Origin: an uncultured Pelagibacteraceae bacterium
GTDB taxonomy: Bacteria; Pseudomonadota; Alphaproteobacteria; Pelagibacterales; Pelagibacteraceae
Reading direction: 5' to 3'
DNA length: 54,157 nt
NCBI GenBank assembly: GCA_902564245.1
Contig: CACFAF010000006.1
Coordinates: 1 to 54,157, forward strand
Under the pieces are notes generated by a model. That model saw nothing but the letters and a program-made list of their open reading frames with translations. It was not told the origin of the DNA and searched no databases. Made by a program: the position numbers and the translations under genes. Positions within the stretch are counted from its first letter, which is position 1; each line of letters starts with the position of its first letter. Positions 1 through 13,619 of the stretch are shown in pieces.

Positions 1-1638
1 TTCTTTTAATTTAATCTCCCCGCTCTCTACTTTTCCATAATGAACAAATAGATCGCCTAATTTTTTTTGTACATCCTCAACTTTAAATTTGAAGGTACCA
101 CCGGTAATATAACCAGTATCACCAATCTGTCCTCCCGACTCTCCATAAAAAGGTGTTTGATTAACAATAATCATTGCGTCATCATCTTTGATTAAACTTT
201 TTACTTCTTTATTACTTTTAATTAATGATAATATAATTCCTTCAGCCTTATTACTTTGGTATCCTAAAAATTCTGTAGGTCCTAACTTATCTTTTATTCC
301 AAACCAAATATTTTCAATAGAACTATCTCCTGATCCTTTCCAATTTTTCTTAGCGAGCTCTCGACTTTCTTTCATCAAAGAGTTCACTTTATTATGATCT
401 ATAATAATGGATTTATTTTTTAAAATATCTTCAGTAAGATCTAGTGGAAAGCCATAAGTATCATAAAGTTTAAAAGCAACTTCGCCAGGTAAAACTTTAT
501 CTACTTTTGTAATTTCCTCATTCAAAATTTTCATACCTCTCTCTAAAAGAACTAAAAATTTTTCCTCTTCCATTCTAAGTGTCTCTTTAATTAAAGACTC
601 AGCTCTTTTTAACTCAGGGTAATTACCTGACATTTCGTTCATTAATGTTTTAAATATGTTAAAAAAAATTGGCTTCTTAGTTCCTAAAAAATGAGAGTGT
701 CTCATTCCTCTTCTCATAATTCTTCTTAAAACATAGCCTCTACCTTCGTTTGATGGAAGGACACCTTCCGAAATTAAAAAAGAACTTGCTCTTAAATGAT
801 CGGCAATAACTCTAAAACTAGAAATATTATTTTCGTCAGGTTTCTTTTTAGTTGCTTCAGAAATAGATCCGATAAGTTTTTTAAAATGATCTGTTTCATA
901 ATTATCATGGGTTCCTTGTAAAAGCGCTGTAATTCTTTCTAGACCCATTCCAGTATCTACTGAGGGTTTCGGAAGATTTATTCTTTTATTTTTAGATAGT
1001 TGTTCAAATTGCATAAAAACTAAATTCCAAATTTCAATATATCTATCTCCATCTTGATCTTTAGTTCCTGGTAAACCACCTTTTAAATGATCACCATGAT
1101 CAAAAAATATTTCAGAACATGGTCCACAAGGTCCAGTCTCACCCATAGACCAAAAATTATCAGATGTAGAAATTTTTATTATTCTATCTTCACCAAAACC
1201 TGTTATTTTCTTCCAAAGCTTAAAGGCTTCCTCATCTTCATTAAATACTGTGAAATAAAGCTTATTTTTATCTAATCCAAAATCTTTAGTAATTAAATTC
1301 CATGCAAGCTCAATAGCTCTTTCTTTAAAGTAATCTCCAAACGAAAAGTTCCCCAACATTTCAAAAAATGTATGATGTCTTGGGGTATAACCTACATTTT
1401 CTAAATCATTATGCTTACCACCAGCTCTCACACACTTTTGAGAAGTGGTTGCTGTTTTATAGTCCCGCTTTTCTAAACCTGTAAAAACATTTTTAAACTG
1501 TACCATCCCCGAATTAGCAAACATTAGAGTAGGATCATTATTTGGGACCAAATTACTTGAGTCTACAATTCTATGACCATTCTTCTCAAAATATTTTAGG
1601 AATGTTTCTCTTATCTGATTTAAAGTTTTTCCAGCCAT
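1..1638 (-). CDS. alaS: Alanine--tRNA ligase, 5' part (cut by left edge)
   Basis: Class II aminoacyl-tRNA synthetase that charges tRNA-Ala in the cytoplasm. Reading leftward from the ATG at 1638, about 546 codons stay open to the window edge, against roughly 875 for a full AlaRS, so the catalytic and tRNA-recognition part is present and the C-terminal editing domain is mostly outside. Typical AlaRS stretches are visible: [18 protein letters not shown] at the start, then [19 protein letters not shown] and [14 protein letters not shown]. Only 19 bp separate its start from the end of the upstream restriction gene, so its promoter must lie inside that gene or it is co-transcribed with it. recA and alaS are neighbours in many proteobacteria; here 3.5 kb of restriction-modification genes separate them. 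Identification is secure. Confidence 0.97.
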
Positions 1639-1657
1639 ATATTATATATATAACTTT

Positions 1658-3035
1658 TTAATTTTTTAGGAAAGGATCATTATCCTTAAAATCATTGTGC
1701 CAGGTTAATATTTTATTATTAATGTAACATAATGAAATTTTAAGATCTTTCATCAATCTTATGTAATGACTTCTAAATAGCTCAGATGGGTCAGAATGAA
1801 AAAGCAAGTGTTTAAAACATTCTTTATCTTTGAATGTTTCATCCTCAAATTTAAACTGATATTCGTAGTCTAATAGTTGTGCAATACCTTTTCTAAACTG
1901 ACCAGTTAGATTACTTGGTATCCAACTTTTTACCTCAAATATGTGCATTTTTTTTCTCAAATTCAAAATACATATCAATTGGATCATAATGAACTTTAAT
2001 TTTTTTATTTTGAACAAAATTTTTTGCATGAAATAAAGCAACGTCATGCATTTGGGTGGACTCTTTTCTTGTTTGCGCAGTCAAACGAGGGTTTGTTTTA
2101 TATCTTATTGATGATTTGGTATTTGATTGTTTTAAGAATTTTTCTAAATTTCTAGTTTCTGTAAAATCTTTTATCTTTATTTTTTTTGCTGTAATAACTC
2201 TATTTCTACGATCAAAATATTCATCGGGTGATAAAGTTTTTATAATTTCTAAATTTTTGTCATTTTCTTTTTTTTCTGAAATTTTCTTAGTTTCAACAAA
2301 ATTTTTAGAAACAATAGATAATGATTCTATGAGGTTAATTCCTAAAGAAGTAAGCTCATAAACTTTGATTTTTTTAGAATCTTCTTTACTAATACCTAAA
2401 AGTGTTTTGGGATTTAAATTAGTTTCTCTTACAATCTTTAATGGACCTATTATGCCATATACCCAATTTAACAAGTCAGGACTTTCTCCACCCTTAAAGT
2501 ATTTTATACAAAATGCTTTAATAATATCTGGTGCAAATTTTAGTGAAGGAGATGAGGTATAAAAATATCCTTCATTAGCTATCATGTTTAAAGCCCGTAA
2601 AACTATGTTTGTTCCAATATTTATATTATTTAGGTTAGTTTCCGAGATTGATTTATAAAAAACTTTTCTCAAATAATCTGGAATTTCATTTTGGTTTTTA
2701 TATCCTTTTTTTGAAAAATATAAATCTCGAGCTTTTTTACCATCTTCAGAAAGACCAAAATTATACAATCCATTTTTTTCTTTTTCATTTGTAAATCCAA
2801 AGCAAGTAAGCACTCTTCTTTTTTGTGATTTAATTGATGGAGCTTTTCTACTAGTCCAAGCTGAATTTTTATTTGGTTTACTCCAGATAAAATAATCTTT
2901 ATTTTCAAATTGCTCTAACCATTGATGGATATGAATAGTAATTGGTCTATATATAACTTTTATAATCGGAAATTTATTTAACTTTGATTGATTGGAGTCA
3001 AAAAAATTATTTAACTGTTCTTCCAATGTGCCCAT
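1658..3035 (-). pseudogene. Type II restriction endonuclease, PD-(D/E)XK fold, split by a frameshift
   Basis: Probable DNA-cutting partner of the two adjacent cytosine methyltransferases. The first frame (3035 down to 1935, 366 codons) ends just after a run of eight A (1948-1955 on this strand). The next frame continues through FEVKSW, then a Q..R..I.QLL.Y helix, to 1658. Removing one A joins them into about 458 residues. The join lies inside the predicted active site: PID (Asp354) is in the first frame and E-V-K (Glu367, Lys369 after joining) in the second, giving D-x(12)-ExK, a PD-(D/E)XK spacing. The N-terminal 300 residues match nothing I recognise and probably carry site recognition. The second frame could start at its own ATG (1948) but would lack the first catalytic Asp. 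The gene may be inactive, switched by slippage, or a consensus error. The nuclease call rests on motif and context. Confidence 0.72.
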
Positions 3036-3067
3036 GAAAGAATATTAGTAAATGTAGAATAATTAAT

Positions 3068-4099
3068 CTACAAATTTTTAGCAAACAATTCAGAGAGTAA
3101 AGGGGGTACTGCATTACCTACTTGTTTATATTGACTCGTTTTTGATCCTTGAAATACAAAATTATCTGGAAAGGATTGTAACCTAGCGCATTCTCTTACT
3201 GTTGGTATTCTATTAGCCTTATAATGAAAATAATTTCTATGACCTGTATCTATTGTTAGTGAGGGTAATTTACTGTTCATCCTCTGAAATGTTTTATTAT
3301 ATTTTCTTATTTCCCAATATTTTTTATCTAAATCGTGAATAGTACCTCCATCTCTTATTTTAGAGATTACACTTATAGTTTGATCTTCATGGTTAGTGTT
3401 TTCGTGATTTATTATTTTTTTTGAATTTTTTCTCATTTGTCTTTGATATGTTGATTTTGCTTCAACTGGATATTGGTAAACACCATTTCCTTTTTTTGAA
3501 TTAAGTTTAAAATTTAAATCAGATATTGCTTCATAGCTTGAAATAAATTTATTATTCTCTTTTGGAAATTCAAATTCTTTATTTTTAGTGCCTATTATAA
3601 ATACTCTTTTTCTATTTTGTGGAACACCATAAGAGGATGAATTAATTAATTTATAATTTATTTTATAACCTAATCCATTATTTCCAAATCTTTTAATTAT
3701 ATCCTGAATAAATATACCTTCGCTTAAATTTAAAAAACCACTTACATTTTCAATAATGAAAAAATTTGGATTTACTTTTTCGACTGTATTATAAAATTCA
3801 AGATAAAGATGATTCCTTTTATCTTCAACTTTTCTAGTACCAACTGTACTAAATCCTTGGCATGGAGGTCCACCTATAACACCATCTATTTTCTTATTTT
3901 TTTTTATAATGTTGTTTAAATGATTTTTATTAAAATCTTTGATATCTTGATTAAAAATTTCTATTTCAGGAAAGTTATATTTATAAGTAAGCAACGCATC
4001 TTTCCAATGGTCAACAGCTGCAACAACTTTGTAATTATTTTTTTTAAAACCATAAGATAAACCACCAACACCACAAAATAGATCAATTATTTTTTTCAC
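3068..4099 (-). CDS. DNA (cytosine-5-)-methyltransferase 1 of an R-M pair
   Basis: Transfers methyl from S-adenosylmethionine to C5 of cytosine in a short DNA site. The 343 residues are a normal bacterial length, and motifs appear in the standard order: motif I DLFCGVGG (6-13), motif IV GGPPCQGFS with catalytic Cys80, motif VI ENV (117-119), motif VIII YGVPQNRKRVF, and motif X GNAVPP (328-333). The stretch between VIII and X, about residues 180-300, is the target-recognition region and differs from its neighbour's. It overlaps the upstream methyltransferase by 4 bp (ATGA), so the two are translationally coupled, and it is followed 32 bp on by the nuclease. Two different m5C methyltransferases beside one nuclease usually mean an asymmetric site, each enzyme modifying one strand; that part is inference. 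Confidence 0.95.
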   Translation of the reverse strand: MKKIIDLFCGVGGLSYGFKKNNYKVVAAVDHWKDALLTYKYNFPEIEIFNQDIKDFNKNHLNNIIKKNKKIDGVIGGPPCQGFSTVGTRKVEDKRNHLYLEFYNTVEKVNPNFFIIENVSGFLNLSEGIFIQDIIKRFGNNGLGYKINYKLINSSSYGVPQNRKRVFIIGTKNKEFEFPKENNKFISSYEAISDLNFKLNSKKGNGVYQYPVEAKSTYQRQMRKNSKKIINHENTNHEDQTISVISKIRDGGTIHDLDKKYWEIRKYNKTFQRMNSKLPSLTIDTGHRNYFHYKANRIPTVRECARLQSFPDNFVFQGSKTSQYKQVGNAVPPLLSELFAKNL

Positions 4100-5151
4100 T
4101 TCTTTAAAATAACTTTTTTAAAGTTTTTGGCTATCTCTTTTGATAATAATGGAGGTACTGCATTTCCTATTTGTCGATATTGACTTGTTCTTGATCCAAT
4201 AAATTCAAAGTTGTCTGTAAAAGATTGAATTCTAGCAGCCTCTCTCGGTGTTGGTATCCTGTGATATATGGGATGGAAATAATTACTATGAGCATTTCCA
4301 GTATCTATAGTTACAGAAAAATCATCTTCTTTAAGTCTTTTAAAAGCTGATGAATGACGATTGTTTCTATTGTTTTTAAATAACTCAACTGGAATACTCT
4401 GCCAATTTTCACCTTGTTTGACTTGTTTAATTTTTTCTATAGTGCTCTTTGCTGGATATACAATATCGTGATTTAAAACCTTTGAATTTTTTTTTCTTAA
4501 ATATTTTATGTAATTATTACCCAGTTTACCGTTTAATTTTTTTTCATCTTTTTTCTCTAAAGAATAGAGTTCTGAAATAGCATCTTTTACTGTAACTTTA
4601 TTTTGTTTTTTTAGAGTTTCAAAAAAATCTATATTGCTTAGTCTATTTCCTACTACAAATACTCTTTTTCTTATTTGTGGAACTCCAAACTCAGAGGCAT
4701 TAAGTAATTTGTAGTCTACTTTGTATCCACTTTTATTTAATATTTCATGTATATTGTTAATAATTTCACCTTTTGATCTAGATAGAATGCCAGAGACATT
4801 TTCTATTAGAATCATCTTAGGTTTAATTATTTTGACAAATTCAATGAATTTTAAAAACAATAGGTTTCTAGGATCACTATAATTTTTATGCCATCTATTT
4901 GCATTAGAAAAACCCTGGCATGGAGGTCCGCCTATAATTACATCGATATTCTTATAATTTTTTTTAATAAATTCTTTGTTTAACTTATTTATATCTTTTA
5001 CAAAAAATTTACCTTTTCCAAAATTTTTTTTAAATGTTTCTATGGAGTCTGGATCGTGATCTATTGCTCCCTCAATTTTAAAACCAGCTAATTTAAAGCC
5101 TAAACTTAGGCCACCACATCCACTAAATAAATCTAAAACTTTTAAACTCAT
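4096..5151 (-). CDS. DNA (cytosine-5-)-methyltransferase 2 of an R-M pair
   Basis: Second C5 methyltransferase, 351 residues and first gene of the R-M operon. Motifs: I DLFSGCGG (7-14), IV GGPPCQGFS with catalytic Cys78, VI ENV (117-119), VIII FGVPQIRKRVF, X GNAVPP (329-334). It shares the flanking framework with its downstream partner (both carry 'SRTSQY/SKTSQY' before motif X) but differs in the variable domain, so the pair are diverged paralogues rather than a recent duplication. The start ATG at 5149-5151 has a purine-rich GAGAG a few bases upstream. The gene begins about 58 bp after the recA terminator hairpin. I see no convincing promoter there; methyltransferase-first order would let protection be made before the nuclease. 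Confidence 0.95.
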   Translation of the reverse strand: MSLKVLDLFSGCGGLSLGFKLAGFKIEGAIDHDPDSIETFKKNFGKGKFFVKDINKLNKEFIKKNYKNIDVIIGGPPCQGFSNANRWHKNYSDPRNLLFLKFIEFVKIIKPKMILIENVSGILSRSKGEIINNIHEILNKSGYKVDYKLLNASEFGVPQIRKRVFVVGNRLSNIDFFETLKKQNKVTVKDAISELYSLEKKDEKKLNGKLGNNYIKYLRKKNSKVLNHDIVYPAKSTIEKIKQVKQGENWQSIPVELFKNNRNNRHSSAFKRLKEDDFSVTIDTGNAHSNYFHPIYHRIPTPREAARIQSFTDNFEFIGSRTSQYRQIGNAVPPLLSKEIAKNFKKVILKK

Positions 5152-5209
5152 GATTCTCTCTTAATTTATCATTTATTCTTAGCCTTAAAAAGTTTCTTCT
5201 TAGAGGGGA

Positions 5210-5234
5210 AAAGGCGCTAATAATAAGCGCCTTT
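5210..5234 (-). terminator. Rho-independent terminator of recA
   Basis: Perfect GC-containing stem AAGGCGC/GCGCCTT (5211-5217 with 5227-5233), extended by an A-T pair on each side, around a short TA-rich loop. On the minus strand it lies 25 bp after the recA stop and is followed by TTTT. It insulates recA from the downstream restriction-modification genes. Confidence 0.8.
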
Positions 5235-5258
5235 ATAATTTAAAGATGACCTTTAATT

Positions 5259-6407
5259 TTAGTTCTTTTTAGAAGGAGCAGTCTCTTTTGCAGCCTCTTC
5301 TTTTTCGGCTACTTTCTTCTCCTTTTCAATTTTCTCAGGACTTAATGGATTTCCTTCAATTTTCTTTGAAATCACACCTGCTTTTTCTCTTATTGACATT
5401 TCAATTTCTGCTGCAACCTTTGGATTTTGTTCTAGATATAACTTGGCGTTTTCTCTGCCTTGTCCAATTTTTTCTCCTTTATATGCATACCAAGCACCAG
5501 ATTTTTCTACAATTTCTGCTTTAGCTCCAAGATCAACTAGCTCTCCAACTTTGCTTATTCCTTTACCATACATTAAATCAAACTCTACAACTTTAAATGG
5601 AGGTGCTACTTTATTTTTAACAACTTTGACTCTAGTAGAATTACCAATGATTTCATCTTTATCCTTAATGGCTCCTATTCTTCTTATATCCATTCTTACT
5701 GATGAATAAAATTTCAGAGCATTACCTCCAGATGTTGTTTCAGGACTACCAAACATAACTCCGATTTTCATTCTGATTTGATTAATAAAAATAACCATTG
5801 TATTTGTTCTTGATATTGAGCTTGTTAATTTTCTTAAAGCTTGGCTCATTAATCTTGATTGAAGGCCCACATGATGATCTCCCATTTCACCTTCAATTTC
5901 TGCTCTTGGTGTTAATGCTGCAACAGAGTCAACAACAAGTACCGATATAGAGCCTGATTTAATTAATGTATCTGCTATCTCTAGTGCTTGTTCACCGGCA
6001 TCAGGTTGTGAAATTAATAATTCTTCTGTATTTACACCAAGTTTTTTCGCATAAATTGGATCTAAAGCATGTTCTGCATCTACAAATGCACAAATTCCAC
6101 CTGCTTTTTGAGCTTCCGCGACCACCTGTAAAGCTAATGTTGTTTTTCCAGACGACTCTGGTCCATAAACTTCGATAATTCTTCCTTTTGGCAAACCACC
6201 TATTCCAAGAGCTAAATCTAAACTTAAGGAGCCAGTTGAAACAGACTCAATATCCATTGCTCTTTGTTGGCCAAGTTTCATTACAGAACCTTTACCGAAA
6301 TTATCTGTGATTTGGCTAATTGCTGCCTCTAATGCTTTGTTTTTTTCTTTATTCTCTGTATCTTGATCTTTTCCAGATTTAACTACTTTTAAATTGTTTT
6401 TAGTCAT
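5259..6407 (-). CDS. recA: Recombinase RecA
   Basis: ATP-dependent strand-exchange protein for homologous recombination. It also triggers LexA/UmuD self-cleavage. Length is 382 residues. Walker [10 protein letters not shown] lies at 82-90; the Walker B-type LVVDSVAAL, the [21 protein letters not shown] loop-2 stretch and the basic C-terminal domain with an acidic/lysine tail are all present. The start ATG (6405-6407) has a GAGG just upstream. Upstream on the same strand is a LexA-like box (6458-6472), and a terminator follows at 5210-5234, so this is a self-contained SOS-type unit. Nothing is unusual in the protein. Confidence 0.99.
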
Positions 6408-9778: not shown

Positions 9779-10174
9779 ATGAAACTTACCATTCCCTTTT
9801 ATCTACACAAAGCTGGCGCTGGCTTTCCCTCTCCAGCAACAGATTATTTAGAAGAGGACATTGATCTTAATATGCATTTAATAAAAAATGTTCCAGCAAC
9901 TTTTATCATTAGAGTTCAAGGAAAATCTATGAACAATGTTGGTATCCAAGATGGTGATTTATTAGTTGTTGATAGAAGTTTAAAGCCTAAAAATTTTTCA
10001 ACAGTGGTTGCAAATGTTCATGACGAACTAGTTGTTAAAAGCTTTATTAAATCTAAAGATTGCCAGTTTCTAACGTCTGGCTCAAGAAGAATTGAAGATA
10101 AAATATCTATTAATAATGAGTCTGATGTATCTATATGGGGTGTTGTAACTTATGTCATTCATGCAACATACTAA
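9779..10174 (+). CDS. umuD: UmuD, self-cleaving subunit of DNA polymerase V
   Basis: S24-family protein that, on RecA filaments, removes its own N-terminus to form UmuD', the partner of UmuC in translesion synthesis. Of 131 residues (E. coli 139), the cleavage region AGFPSPATDY puts the cut at Ala14-Gly15; the catalytic pair is Ser50 (GKSM) and Lys87 (LVVKSF). The start ATG follows the LexA box by 9 bp with no evident Shine-Dalgarno. It overlaps umuC by 14-23 bp, the usual coupling of the pair. All key residues are present, so UmuD should work even though umuC beside it is broken. Confidence 0.95.
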   Translation: MKLTIPFYLHKAGAGFPSPATDYLEEDIDLNMHLIKNVPATFIIRVQGKSMNNVGIQDGDLLVVDRSLKPKNFSTVVANVHDELVVKSFIKSKDCQFLTSGSRRIEDKISINNESDVSIWGVVTYVIHATY

Positions 10175-11431
10175 AAAAATAGCACTAGTTGATTGTAATT
10201 CTTTCTATGTTTCATGTGAAAAACTATTCAATCCAAAGTTGATAAATAAACCTGTGGTTGTTTTATCAAACAATGATGGTTGTATTATATCAAGATCTAA
10301 TGAAGCAAAAGCTTTGGGAATTAAAATGGGTGAACCTTACTTTAAGGCTAAAGACATAATTCTTAAAAACAAAGTTTATGTTTTTTCTTCAAACTATTCT
10401 CTGTATGGAGATTTATCTAGAAGGGTTATGAGGACACTAAAAAGATTTAATTCTGAATTAGAAATATATTCTATAGATGAAGCTTTTTTAGATCTGAGTA
10501 ATTTTTCTGATAATGAAGTGGAAGATGTTGGAAAAGAAATTAGAAATATTGTTTTAAAATGGACAGGTATACCAACAAGTATTGGTATCGCAAAAACAAA
10601 AACTTTAAGCAAGATAGCTAATCATATTGCAAAAAAAAAACAATCTGGTGTAACTAGTCTAATTGGAATTAAAAATATTGACCCAATACTAGAAAAAATA
10701 GATATTAATGATGTCTGGGGAGTTGGAAAACAACTTACTAAATTTTATTATAAAAATGGAATTTATAATGCAAAACAACTAAAGAATATATCTAACACTT
10801 GGATAAAAAAAGCTCTAACGTTTTAAGTTCTAGAACTGCCATGGAACTTAGAGGTATCTCTTGTATCAAGCTTGAAAAAACTCTATCTAAAAGAAAAAGT
10901 TGTATAGTGTCGCGCTCTTTTGGTAAGAGAGTTAAGCACTTTCAAGAATTAAAAGAAGCAGTTGCAAATTACTGTTTAAATGCCTCTGAAAAAATAAGAT
11001 CGGAGTCATTAGTCGCAAAAGCGATAACTGTCTTTATTAGAACAAGTCCATTTCAAAGAAATTCAAATTATTATTCAAGCTCAAAAACTATGGACTTTCC
11101 AATTGCAACAAATAATAGTATTGAAATTGTTAAAACTGCAGTTTTAATATTGAATAATATTTTTAAAAATGGTTATAGATATCAAAAAGCTGGCATTATG
11201 CTAACAGGCTTACATAATGATGATAAAGAAAAAAATTTATTTTCATCTGAAAAAGATGAAAAAATAAATAATTTAATGAGATCAATTGATAATACAAATT
11301 ACAAGTATGGTCGATCTACTTTAAGTCTTGCAAGCGCTGGGGTTCAAAAAAAATGGAACATGAGAAAAGAATATTCATCTAAAATAGATACTGCTGATTT
11401 TTATTGTTTACCAAAAATTAGAGTTATTTAA
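10152..11431 (+). pseudogene. umuC: UmuC, Y-family DNA polymerase, frameshifted
   Basis: Catalytic subunit of error-prone polymerase V. The first frame (to 10826, start ATG at 10152 or, better, 10161) has DCNSFYVSCE, the SNYSLYGDLSRR stretch and the catalytic SIDEAFLDLS, then the helix-hairpin-helix region. It stops after 'WIKKALTF'. The second frame picks up from the same sequence as WIKK-SSNVLSSRTAMELRGISC and runs through the little-finger domain to 11431. The break is in a run of seven A (10805-10811); an eighth A restores one reading frame of about 425 residues. As written, the polymerase domain would be cut off from the DNA- and clamp-binding part. The 3' end overlaps the convergent glycosyltransferase by 8 bp. 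Confidence 0.92.
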
Positions 11432-12293
11432 TTTTGTTAATATCACCAATATTTTTGAGAGAACTATTAAATTCTTCCATATTTTCTCTTAGAGCTAAAT
11501 TGGAGACTAAATAGACCATTACTAATAGTAATATTAAAGGTATTGAGGTTATTAAAGTAGCATTACTTTTTATCAACAAAATGTAAAAAACAATAAATAA
11601 TGCAGAACGAATTAAAACTGTTTTTCTAAAAACACTTATAATGGATAGAGAATGATTTAATAAATTAAAGAAACTCATTTTAGAAGGTCCAAAATATCTA
11701 CTTCCTCGAATAGAGGGTACTGCAAATAAATCGTTTTCAATTTTACTTAATGCACCTGAAAAACTATTCCAAGTAGCTTTTTCATTAATCATTTTTTCAA
11801 CAGTAGATTTGGGTAAGCAAGTATAATTTCCATATTTAATTGATTTACCGGTAAAAGTTAAAGTAATTAGCTTATGGATTTGGTAGCAAGTTTTAAAAAA
11901 AAAATTTTCTGATCTTTTTATTCTTTCCCCCACTATAGGTTTGCCATTTGAATCTTTGATTTGATCTATAAACTCTTTAATTTCTTCAGGTCTATCTTCG
12001 CCATCTCCATCCATCGGAATAACATAATCAAAATCATCTTTTTCATAAATATATTTTAATCCAGTAGCAATACATCTTGAATGACCTTGATTTTTTTTCA
12101 TATTCAAAATTTTGATGGAGTCAATATTATCTAAATTTTTTTCATCATCTTGACGATCATAATTAGATGCATCATTAATGATAATTATAGAAATTTGAAA
12201 TTCTGGATTAATTGATAGATCATTAATTTTGTCTATAAGTTTAGAGACTGACTGCCAGTCATTATAAATAGGAATTAAAATTTTGATTTTCAT
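11424..12293 (-). CDS. Family 2 glycosyltransferase with C-terminal membrane helices
   Basis: Inverting GT-A glycosyltransferase of the DPM/ArnC-like group, 289 residues. The N-terminus KIKILIPIYND and the acidic metal/nucleotide motif VIPMDGDGED (92-100) are clear. The last 60 residues hold two hydrophobic segments (about 229-265), placing the enzyme on the inner membrane. Only 3 bp separate it from the upstream GT-C gene, so the two likely act together: this type of enzyme makes polyprenyl-phosphate sugars, which GT-C enzymes use as donors. Which sugar is not visible. Confidence 0.85.
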   Translation of the reverse strand: MKIKILIPIYNDWQSVSKLIDKINDLSINPEFQISIIIINDASNYDRQDDEKNLDNIDSIKILNMKKNQGHSRCIATGLKYIYEKDDFDYVIPMDGDGEDRPEEIKEFIDQIKDSNGKPIVGERIKRSENFFFKTCYQIHKLITLTFTGKSIKYGNYTCLPKSTVEKMINEKATWNSFSGALSKIENDLFAVPSIRGSRYFGPSKMSFFNLLNHSLSIISVFRKTVLIRSALFIVFYILLIKSNATLITSIPLILLLVMVYLVSNLALRENMEEFNSSLKNIGDINKIK

Positions 12294-12296
12294 TAT

Positions 12297-13619
12297 TTAA
12301 TATCTTCCCAAACAAACATCGTCTACGCAAATAAATTGTGAAGAATTGTTTAATATTTCATCATTTGTAAAACCTTCCCATTTAGGTCTAGATTTTAAAT
12401 GATAAGAAAGATTCCCCGCCTTCCATTCATTTCCAGTTACAAATTCAATTTCTTTATCGAAATCTTTATCCCAAATAAATTGAACTTTAGCTGCAATTTC
12501 TTTTCCAGGATAATCTGTTCTTTTATCTGTCTTATTAATAGATTCAAAAGAATATAGAATTGGTGACAAGAAAAATAAAAATATAAATCCATAAAAAAAT
12601 GAATTCATTTTTTTTATATCTATTTGAGATTGGAATATATAAACAAATAAAACTCCAAAAAATAAATAAAATGGAGTCATCCACATAGTTCTAATTTTTG
12701 ATCCCGTAATAACAGAAGTCATAAACATTAAAATAATAGGTAAAATATTTATGAATATTAAAAATAGTAATTTTTTATCATTTAAATTTATTTTAAATCT
12801 TATTTTTTTTATTAATAAAAAGATTAAAAAGAAAAATGGAATTAAAATTCCCAATTGTTTAAATAGAAATATAAATGGATATTGAATATGATCTAAGATA
12901 GCTGATGCTTCTAAACCTGATCTTTTTAAACCATACAAAATTGTTACAAAATCATTATTAAAAAGCCAGATAAAATGTGGCACCAATAAAACTAAAAATA
13001 CTTCTATGGTTATTAAATACTTAAAATCAAATTTTTTAGTCTTTTTAATAAATATTATCCAAATAAAAAGAAGGTCAATAGATACCAATAAATAGATAAA
13101 TAAGTATTTTGATAAAAAACCTAAGGCTGCAAATAATCCAACTAAAAAACAATCTATAAATTTAATCTCTTTTGTCTCATAAATTTTCCAAGAATAATAA
13201 ACAACTAAAGACCAAAAAGGTAGTTGGCTCACATTCACATTAAATTCAGGAGTAGTAAAATTATAAAAATATATAGACTCTAATAATAATAATGAAATTA
13301 AGCTTAATTTAGCATTTTTGAAAATTTCATAGGCAAATTTAAAAACATAGTAAAAAGAAATTAAGACAAATATTTGACTTAAAAGATAATATACCCAGTC
13401 TAGAGGGCCAAAAATTTGATAAAAAATTTCTACAAAAAAAGCACTCATAGGCGGATGTTTGTTAAATCCCCAATCTAAATTACTTCCCCAGGCCAAAGCT
13501 TCAATAGTATCTAACGGTAAATTATTATTTGTTAATGATGGAACCAAAGTCCAAATTAACAAATGAACTATAATAAAAATGTAAAATAGATTGTTTATTT
13601 TTGTTTTATTTACAGTCAT
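12297..13619 (-). CDS. GT39/ArnT-like membrane glycosyltransferase (PMT_2 family)
   Basis: Polytopic membrane enzyme, 440 residues and about 11-12 hydrophobic helices. The first periplasmic loop has LDTIEALAWG with Asp37/Glu40 and then a KHPPM motif (54-58), as in ArnT and bacterial PMT proteins that move a sugar from a polyprenyl carrier to lipid or protein. A C-terminal periplasmic tail from about residue 370 (ending in a Cys-x4-Cys stretch, CVDDVC) is soluble. It is paired with the GT2 gene that follows. Acceptor and sugar are unknown. Confidence 0.82.
   Translation of the reverse strand: MTVNKTKINNLFYIFIIVHLLIWTLVPSLTNNNLPLDTIEALAWGSNLDWGFNKHPPMSAFFVEIFYQIFGPLDWVYYLLSQIFVLISFYYVFKFAYEIFKNAKLSLISLLLLESIYFYNFTTPEFNVNVSQLPFWSLVVYYSWKIYETKEIKFIDCFLVGLFAALGFLSKYLFIYLLVSIDLLFIWIIFIKKTKKFDFKYLITIEVFLVLLVPHFIWLFNNDFVTILYGLKRSGLEASAILDHIQYPFIFLFKQLGILIPFFFLIFLLIKKIRFKINLNDKKLLFLIFINILPIILMFMTSVITGSKIRTMWMTPFYLFFGVLFVYIFQSQIDIKKMNSFFYGFIFLFFLSPILYSFESINKTDKRTDYPGKEIAAKVQFIWDKDFDKEIEFVTGNEWKAGNLSYHLKSRPKWEGFTNDEILNNSSQFICVDDVCLGRY

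What the first reader, a model, noticed from the sequence alone, without database searches (positions are those of the whole stretch)
1658..5151. Type II R-M system with two m5C methyltransferases inserted between recA and alaS
Seen: two C5 methyltransferases with full motif sets, overlapping by 4 bp, then a PD-(D/E)XK-type nuclease, all lying between recA and alaS. Known: recA and alaS are often neighbours in proteobacteria, and R-M systems are uncommon in streamlined SAR11 genomes. Inference: this is an acquired cassette; two different methyltransferases suggest an asymmetric recognition site. The nuclease N-terminus matches nothing I recognise.
Basis: partly seen in the sequence, partly recalled or inferred. 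Interest (0 to 1): 0.62.

Follow-up and report, generated by a model that had tools for sequence, protein, structure and literature searches.

The report
Mobile two-methylase restriction cassette in SAR11
A small DNA-defence cassette (two DNA-marking enzymes and one DNA-cutting enzyme) moved recently between ocean SAR11 bacteria into the gap between two housekeeping genes; related cassettes show the cutter being swapped while the markers stay, and here the cutter gene reads as broken.

Summary
The observation mostly holds. Between recA and alaS lie two complete m5C methyltransferases (4-bp overlap) and a PD-(D/E)XK nuclease gene. One correction: the nuclease is not open here. A one-base frame shift in a run of eight A (1948-1955) parts the catalytic Asp from the ExK motif. 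A 98.5%-identical intact copy exists in assembly AH-321-G15.

It is an acquired cassette. The recA-alaS spacer is short in 67 of 71 order genomes. Between the window and AH-321-G15, dS is 0.05-0.06 in the cassette but 0.89 in recA and 1.76 in alaS. The nuclease N-terminus matches no family searched; only two full-length relatives were found. Its C-terminal domain also occurs behind SRA and MTaX1 domains.

Best reading: a type II R-M system for an asymmetric site, probably IIS-like, one methylase per strand; target untested.

The least expected result concerns the endonuclease. SAG-MED13 has methylases 92-97% identical to the window's, yet the nuclease is 41% identical, with breaks at the gene edges. 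In a second SAR11 methylase pair (93-99% identical in five genomes), nucleases are 36-70% identical or of a different fold (PLD versus HNH). Endonucleases seem to be exchanged around kept methylases.

The parts
5259..6407 (-). recA, left flank of the cassette (upstream in the reading direction)
   Evidence: TIGR02012 E 1.1e-168; 85.6% DNA identity and dS 0.89 to AH-321-G15
5152..5258 (-). recA-M1 spacer: hairpin after recA (GGCGCT..AGCGCC then a short T run, shared with empty sites), then the leader of M1; the alaS -35-like box of empty sites is not seen here
   Evidence: alignment with two other occupied copies, G505 and three empty sites; the terminator scan does not list this hairpin; terminator and promoter roles inferred
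4096..5151 (-). M1: m5C DNA methyltransferase, 351 aa
   Evidence: PF00145 E 1.2e-74; all motifs; 96.9% aa to AH-321-G15, 91.7% to G303
3068..4099 (-). M2: m5C DNA methyltransferase, 343 aa, GTG start, 4-bp overlap with M1
   Evidence: PF00145 E 6.7e-73; all motifs; 97.4% aa to AH-321-G15, 96.5% to G303
1935..3035 (-). R, first frame (366 aa): N-terminal part of unknown family plus the start of the nuclease domain, catalytic Asp (D354) included
   Evidence: no family over its cut-off; first 359 codons dN 0.002, dS 0.049 against AH-321-G15
1948..1955 (-). run of eight A where the frame of R is broken by one base
   Evidence: an intact copy exists in L058
1658..1955 (-). R, second frame: rest of the PD-(D/E)XK domain (E367-x-K369, Q386-x3-Y390)
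   Evidence: fold on the intact L058 copy, pLDDT block means 70-92 from residue 321 on; XisH Z 10.1, BsmI 8.6, McrBC chain M 8.2
1639..1657 (-). 19-bp R-alaS spacer; a -10-like AT box is kept next to the alaS start
   Evidence: promoter role inferred
1..1638 (-). alaS (5' part), right flank of the cassette
   Evidence: TIGR00344 E 5.6e-195; 77.5% DNA identity and dS 1.76 to AH-321-G15

Best explanation
It is a compact type II restriction-modification cassette acquired between SAR11 lineages. M1 and M2 each methylate a cytosine, most likely one on each strand of the same asymmetric site. R binds that site with its N-terminal part and cuts with a C-terminal PD-(D/E)XK domain, probably beside the site (IIS-like). 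Shown: the genes, the motifs, the predicted fold of the nuclease domain, the recent transfer of the cassette without its flanks, the broken R frame in this assembly, and in relatives different R genes beside nearly the same methylases. Inferred: target sequence, asymmetry, shifted cutting, anti-phage role. If the frame shift is real, this cell now methylates but does not restrict (M+ R-), a plausible stage before a new R is picked up.
For: Two complete, different m5C methylases. Intact R with a PD-(D/E)XK domain in AH-321-G15. Purifying selection on R between window and AH-321-G15 (dN 0.002, dS 0.049). Relatives of the R nuclease domain lie next to m5C methylases in G022, G318, G508, G914, G845 and G963. 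In the two SRA-bearing relatives (G337, G239), where a methylase would not be needed, no M1- or M2-like gene was found in the fetched 17.0 and 13.3 kb. Cassette edges coincide with the edges of high identity. The three plasmid relatives of M2 that were opened (of 38 records) also have m5C pairs. A review states that type IIS enzymes usually have two methylases (passages of PMC4081073; see also section 17 of PMC12707154).
Against: No specificity or activity is testable here. R is broken in this assembly. The N-terminal part of R has no confident model (mean pLDDT 38.0), so a separate recognition domain is not shown. XisH, the best fold match, is not known to me as a restriction enzyme (recalled). 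The target-recognition stretches of M1 and M2 can be aligned, so a shared site is not excluded.
Confidence: 0.74

Rival explanations
1. The cassette no longer restricts: R is a fresh pseudogene and M1/M2 persist as a methylation-only (M+ R-) pair, kept for an epigenetic use or only for lack of time to decay.
For: R frame broken between D354 and the ExK motif, so the 366-aa product lacks the ExK; M1 and M2 intact with low dN.
Against: A second one-base break in the same window (translesion polymerase gene, around 10804, also by an A run) raises the chance of sequence error. The part of R before the break shows purifying selection.
Confidence: 0.4
2. The break is a sequencing or assembly error, and R is intact in the cell.
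For: Two one-base breaks at A runs within about 9 kb; the close relative is intact.
Against: 150 A or T runs of 8 or more were counted in 51 scanned frames of 150 aa or more; only 4 of the 150 lie in the broken genes, so an error rate would have to be low. Frames were not checked one by one against relatives.
Confidence: 0.4
3. The A8 run acts as a reversible switch (replication or transcription slippage), so that a part of the cells or transcripts make R.
For: A8 run exactly at the break; slippage at such runs is described in the literature (titles and abstract starts listed; not read further).
Against: AH-321-G15 does not have an uninterrupted run of this length here, and similar runs occur all over this AT-rich window.
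Confidence: 0.12
4. R is a modification-dependent (type IV-like) nuclease that cuts foreign methylated DNA, not the partner of M1/M2.
For: Related nuclease domains also occur in SRA-fused proteins (G337, G239).
Against: No SRA or other domain is found in R over a family cut-off. R lies directly behind the two methylases in all three occupied genomes seen. A nuclease cutting m5C DNA could attack its own host here.
Confidence: 0.05
5. M1 and M2 recognise the same or two unrelated palindromic sites (redundant methylases).
For: Their recognition stretches are alignable and the methylases are about 43-46% identical.
Against: The recognition stretches differ clearly in sequence. Two methylases with one R is the usual layout for asymmetric type IIS sites (PMC4081073 passages).
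Confidence: 0.15

Closest known systems
Type IIA/IIS restriction-modification systems with two methylases
   Same: Two separate methylases plus one larger R; the review says each methylase marks one strand (PMC4081073, passages)
   Different: R belongs to no family searched; target and cut position unknown; R frame broken in the window
FokI, BsmI, BspD6I and PaqCI nuclease domains
   Same: PD-(D/E)XK-like fold by structure comparison (Z 7.1, 8.6, 6.9, 7.4); in FokI, BsmI and BspD6I the matched domain is C-terminal, as here
   Different: Z is in the range where only a common arrangement may be shared; in PaqCI the match is N-terminal (chain residues 2-162); recognition parts could not be compared
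LlaJI (Lactococcus)
   Same: Two m5C methylases for an asymmetric site, GACGC/GCGTC (PMC1459862, abstract passage)
   Different: LlaJI restricts with an McrB-related NTPase and an McrC-related nuclease (PMC12707154 passage); no such ATPase lies in this cassette
SAR11 MTaX1-type systems (G022, G318) with GHKL ATPase and Z1 genes, akin to the MORC neighbourhoods of PMC2292703
   Same: Two m5C methylases; nuclease C-terminal domain about 29% identical to R
   Different: R there has an MTaX1 domain and lies between the methylases on the other strand; Z1 and GHKL genes follow; the window has none of these
HphI-like set (m5C + D12 m6A + HNH) in the same recA-alaS gap of G505
   Same: Same gap, three genes in a row, R end about 20 bp before alaS
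   Different: Different methylase chemistry and nuclease fold; the resemblance to HphI is recalled, not tested

Membership tests
Type II restriction-modification system | DNA methyltransferase with complete catalytic motifs | tested here: met
Type II restriction-modification system | separate endonuclease gene linked to the methylase | tested here: met
   intact 458-aa R in AH-321-G15 with PD-(D/E)XK domain; in the window the frame is broken
Type II restriction-modification system | methylation blocks cutting at the same site | not testable with these tools
   needs expression
Type IIA/IIS | asymmetric recognition sequence, one methylase per strand | not testable with these tools
   two different methylases are present; target unknown
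Type IIS | N-terminal recognition domain separate from C-terminal cleavage domain | tested here: inconclusive
   C-terminal domain modelled; N-terminal job mean pLDDT 38.0, block means 28-59; MarR-like winged helices only at Z 6.2 or less
Type IIS | cleavage outside the site | not testable with these tools
   needs enzyme
PD-(D/E)XK nuclease superfamily | D...ExK motif on the alpha-beta core | tested here: met
   D354, E367, K369 invariant in 10 sequences; fold; weak Cas4 hits of the G303 copy, E 0.0096
MORC/Z1-type R-M | GHKL ATPase and helicase/Z1 gene beside the methylases | tested here: not met
   neighbours are recA and alaS
LlaJI type | McrB-like NTPase gene in the cassette | tested here: not met
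   only three genes in the gap, none with an ATPase hit
Modification-dependent (SRA) nuclease | SRA domain | tested here: not met
   Pfam gives only two sub-threshold hits in R, E 0.078 and 0.25, neither SRA; the G303 copy has none up to E 0.1

The most novel reading that the evidence does not exclude
In SAR11 the methylase pair is the lasting part of a type II system and the endonuclease is a replaceable part. R decays (as it may be doing in this window), the methylases stay, and recombination in the methylase genes and the downstream flank brings in another R for the same site, sometimes of a different fold. If so, the 41%-identical nucleases of AH-321-G15 and SAG-MED13, and the PLD and HNH nucleases of the second pair, are isoschizomers, and SAR11 populations hold pools of unrelated cutters around one fixed methylation pattern, perhaps because phage counter-defence aims at the cutter.
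Probability: 0.4. Interest if true: 0.72.

Novelty: new variant of a known kind. Interest (0 to 1): 0.56.

Why it matters
SAR11 cells are among the most abundant on Earth, with very small genomes, and are often taken to carry few defence genes (recalled). A cassette that moves precisely into a housekeeping gap shows one way such genomes gain and lose defence. Different nucleases beside near-identical methylases give a natural test of whether restriction enzymes of unrelated fold share a target, and whether selection acts on the cutter rather than on the mark. The R family matches no profile library searched here and could be the source of a new endonuclease.

Tried and rejected
A recA-alaS fusion protein: the table gave 'open frames' of about 1300 aa over both genes. 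In the loci read (L045, L046, L047, L050, L051, of which L047 was one of those flagged) recA ends in a normal stop with 90-100 bp of spacer before the next gene, and in L048, also flagged, recA and alaS are separate frames, so it was dropped as a tool artefact.

Integration by a defined repeat: local alignment of the left and right junctions of the window, AH-321-G15, G303 and G505 stood out from Markov-resampled junctions only in G505 (17 of 300 resampled pairs reached its score; the other three were reached by 174, 148 and 122 of 300). No mechanism is claimed.

Loss of the alaS promoter: the -35-like box of empty sites is not seen before M1, but a -10-like box remains before alaS. The promoter scan finds no more sites than shuffles (23 against 21.8), and the terminator scan does not list the hairpin after recA (one other site against 0.8 in shuffles). 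Operon coupling with alaS stays open.

recA-alaS as a defence hot spot: the three other long gaps in the census hold a trypsin-like protease (G066) or an aldehyde dehydrogenase with a DUF779 gene (G078; G105 alike by eye). Only two different R-M sets were found in the gap (the window's, and that of G505), so 'hot spot' is too strong.

Phage or plasmid origin: P0001 has no match in plasmids or phages at E<=0.01. R and M1 gave no relative in the viral contigs reached by the pattern scans. These scans use few peptide patterns and can miss relatives.

Fold of the N-terminal half of R: two AlphaFold jobs stayed at low confidence there. Winged-helix matches are weak (best Z 6.2 and 4.4) and are only a lead. 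A pattern of two winged helices was seen by eye only (note).

Rows set aside: a short weak match of P0001 in G063 (E 1.6e-4, residues 87-159, in a 563-aa protein with no M1/M2-like gene in the fetched stretch) was taken as chance. Partial C-terminal matches were not counted as full-length R. G037 (methylases 59-69% identical) was left out of the five-genome comparison.

Literature: searches listed no title on this locus or on this swap; only the listings (titles, abstract starts) were seen, and some matching papers were not listed. H. pylori hrgA, which replaces hpyIIIR beside a kept methylase, is recalled and comes from no call; it shows that replacing R beside a kept methylase is not new in itself.
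Full report
What is there. On the minus strand, recA (5259-6407) is followed by M1 (4096-5151), M2 (3068-4099) and a nuclease reading R (1658-3035), then alaS (1-1638, running off the window). M1 and M2 overlap by 4 bp and are m5C methyltransferases by PF00145 (E 1.2e-74 and 6.7e-73) with motifs I, IV, VI, VIII, IX and X. Their target-recognition stretches differ but are alignable. R is split over two frames: 366 aa (1935-3035) and a second frame to 1658. The break is a one-base length difference in a run of eight A at 1948-1955. Read through, R is 458 aa.

R. No family is matched over its cut-off in Pfam (sub-threshold hits only, E 0.049-0.25) and none is matched at E<=0.1 in NCBIfam or PADLOC; the PDB sequences give nothing better than E 0.21. 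The intact copies of AH-321-G15 and G303 have no PHROGs hit; the G303 copy has weak Cas4 hits in its nuclease domain (E 0.0096), in keeping with the superfamily. The C-terminal domain carries H330, D354, E367-x-K369 and Q386-x3-Y390; of these H330, D354, E367, K369 and Y390 are invariant in the 10-sequence alignment. The model of the intact copy is confident for residues 321-458 (10-residue block means 70-92) and shows the alpha-beta core. The best structural matches are XisH proteins (Z 10.1 and 9.8), then BsmI 8.6, EndoMS 8.6, a McrBC chain 8.2, PaqCI 7.4, FokI 7.1 and BspD6I 6.9. These support the fold, not a family. The N-terminal half could not be modelled (mean pLDDT 38.0); MarR-like winged helices appear at Z 6.2 or less and 4.4 or less, which is weak. 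Other SAR11 proteins carry a related nuclease domain (23-29% identical) behind an SRA domain (G337, G239) or an MTaX1 domain (G318, G022, G845). G508, G963 and the split G914 look alike by eye. In G022, G318, G508, G914, G845 and G963 the gene lies beside m5C methylases (Pfam checked for G845, G963 and G508). Beside the SRA forms no M1- or M2-like gene was found in the fetched stretch.

Acquisition. A named relative, assembly AH-321-G15 (L058), has the same three genes in the same gap with R intact. DNA identity to the window is 97.7% (M1), 98.2% (M2) and 98.5% (R), but 85.6% for recA, 77.5% for alaS and 67.0% for the tolC-like gene before recA; the block profile falls at the cassette edges. 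dS is 0.060 (M1), 0.052 (M2) and 0.049 (first 359 codons of R) against 0.887 (recA) and 1.764 (alaS, near saturation). So the cassette moved recently without its flanks. Frequency: a query joined from RecA and AlaS found both genes in 71 of 78 order genomes, the window's own included. The distance between the two matches is 119-220 bp in 67 and 1677-3728 bp in 4: the window, G066, G105 and G078. An earlier genus search (match in 151 of 201) listed only part of its rows and was not used for counting; it led to G505. There the same gap holds an m5C methylase, a D12 m6A methylase and an HNH_2 protein. Full-length R was found in 2 of 397 order genomes (own and G303; 7 of 397 with any match), 2 of 399 genus genomes (own and G956, whose coordinates agree with AH-321-G15; 9 of 399 with any match) and 1 of 299 phylum genomes (own). 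In the named genome collection it appeared only in AH-321-G15 and SAG-MED13 (two peptide patterns only). SAG-MED13 is taken to be G303, since contig length and coordinates agree.

Nuclease exchange. G303/SAG-MED13 has M1 and M2 91.7% and 96.5% identical to the window, but R 41.0% identical to the AH-321-G15 copy; it is one open frame of 468 aa. Along the DNA (AH-321-G15 against SAG-MED13), 50-column blocks are 86-100% identical through M2, 78% at its end, about 38-70% through R (one gapped block 20%), then 80% and 96% over the last codons of R, the R-alaS spacer and the start of alaS. M1 and M2 differ in history (dS to G303 0.70 and 0.24). The same is seen in a second, unrelated methylase pair, which follows rpoD in G067 and G068. 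In five genomes (G397, G393, G068, G107, G067) Ma is 94-99% and Mb 93-97% identical in pairs. The convergent nuclease beside them is 36-70% identical among G397, G393, G068 and G067 (HNH_2 in all four), while in G107 it has no similarity to the others (E<=1e-3) and is an NgoFVII-type PLD protein (PF09565 E 3.8e-26). Between G107 and G067 the pair is 96.8% identical over 2393 bp up to the end of Mb, the nuclease genes are unrelated, and identity returns to 88-96% for about 600 bp just beyond the nuclease; the outer flanks are lower (84.9% in rpoD, 75.9% over the 2.7-kb match on the other side). That the exchanged nucleases keep one target is inferred, because the host must be protected.

State of R in the window. 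Two readings are about equally likely. The break may be real (M+ R-). Or it may be a sequence error: a second one-base break near an A run interrupts a translesion polymerase gene (IMS, IMS_C) at about 10804, which is one open frame in AH-321-G15. Against a high error rate, 51 scanned frames of 150 aa or more hold 150 A or T runs of 8 or more, 4 of them in the broken genes. The first 359 codons of R were under purifying selection since the split from AH-321-G15 (dN 0.002, dS 0.049).

How it most likely works. M1 and M2 mark one strand each of an asymmetric site and R cuts unmarked DNA at or beside it. This follows the usual layout for type IIS enzymes as stated in PMC4081073 (passages) and PMC12707154 (section 17). 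Target, asymmetry and cut position are not shown. The three plasmid relatives of M2 that were opened, of 38 records, also have m5C pairs: with a PLD nuclease in L. lactis p275D, with a DUF3883 protein in an Acinetobacter plasmid, and in a Photobacterium plasmid.

Verdict. As a system it is a new variant of a known kind. The wider pattern, different endonucleases around kept methylases, is the part worth following.

Noticed in passing
window 10152-11431 (+): Translesion (IMS/IMS_C) polymerase gene in two overlapping frames, broken by one base near an A run at about 10804; one open frame of 425 aa in AH-321-G15.
   Followed up: partly
L045 (G505) 1811-4915: A different R-M set (m5C, D12 m6A, HNH_2) in the same recA-alaS gap; about 29 bp around the gene starts looks repeated at both ends, at marginal significance.
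   Followed up: partly
L055 4349-7518 and L056 4190-7323: Near-identical m5C pair with non-homologous nucleases (PLD against HNH_2), near-identical DNA on both sides of the nuclease.
   Followed up: yes
L013 8797-10167, L014 8634-10001: SRA plus PD-(D/E)XK-like nucleases in SAR11 genomes without an M1/M2-like methylase in the fetched stretch, perhaps modification-dependent restriction.
   Followed up: no
L012 6984-14682, L015 7382-15097: M-R-M systems with MTaX1 nuclease, Z1 and GHKL ATPase genes in SAR11, akin to the MORC-type neighbourhoods of PMC2292703 (section 4 read).
   Followed up: no
L061 1670-2785; L062 1592-3553; L063 1969-3930: Other inserts between recA and alaS: a trypsin-like protease (G066), and an aldehyde dehydrogenase with a DUF779 gene (G078 by Pfam, G105 by eye).
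   Followed up: partly
window 31000-54157: G+C falls to 16-25% from about 31 kb on; many frames there look like sugar-transfer and surface-glycan genes by eye, as in a variable island.
   Followed up: no
L049 (G487) 1-1826 and 10509-12501: An inverted duplicate of the alaS start with an 87-aa lipoprotein-like frame on one contig, possibly an amplification or assembly chimera.
   Followed up: no
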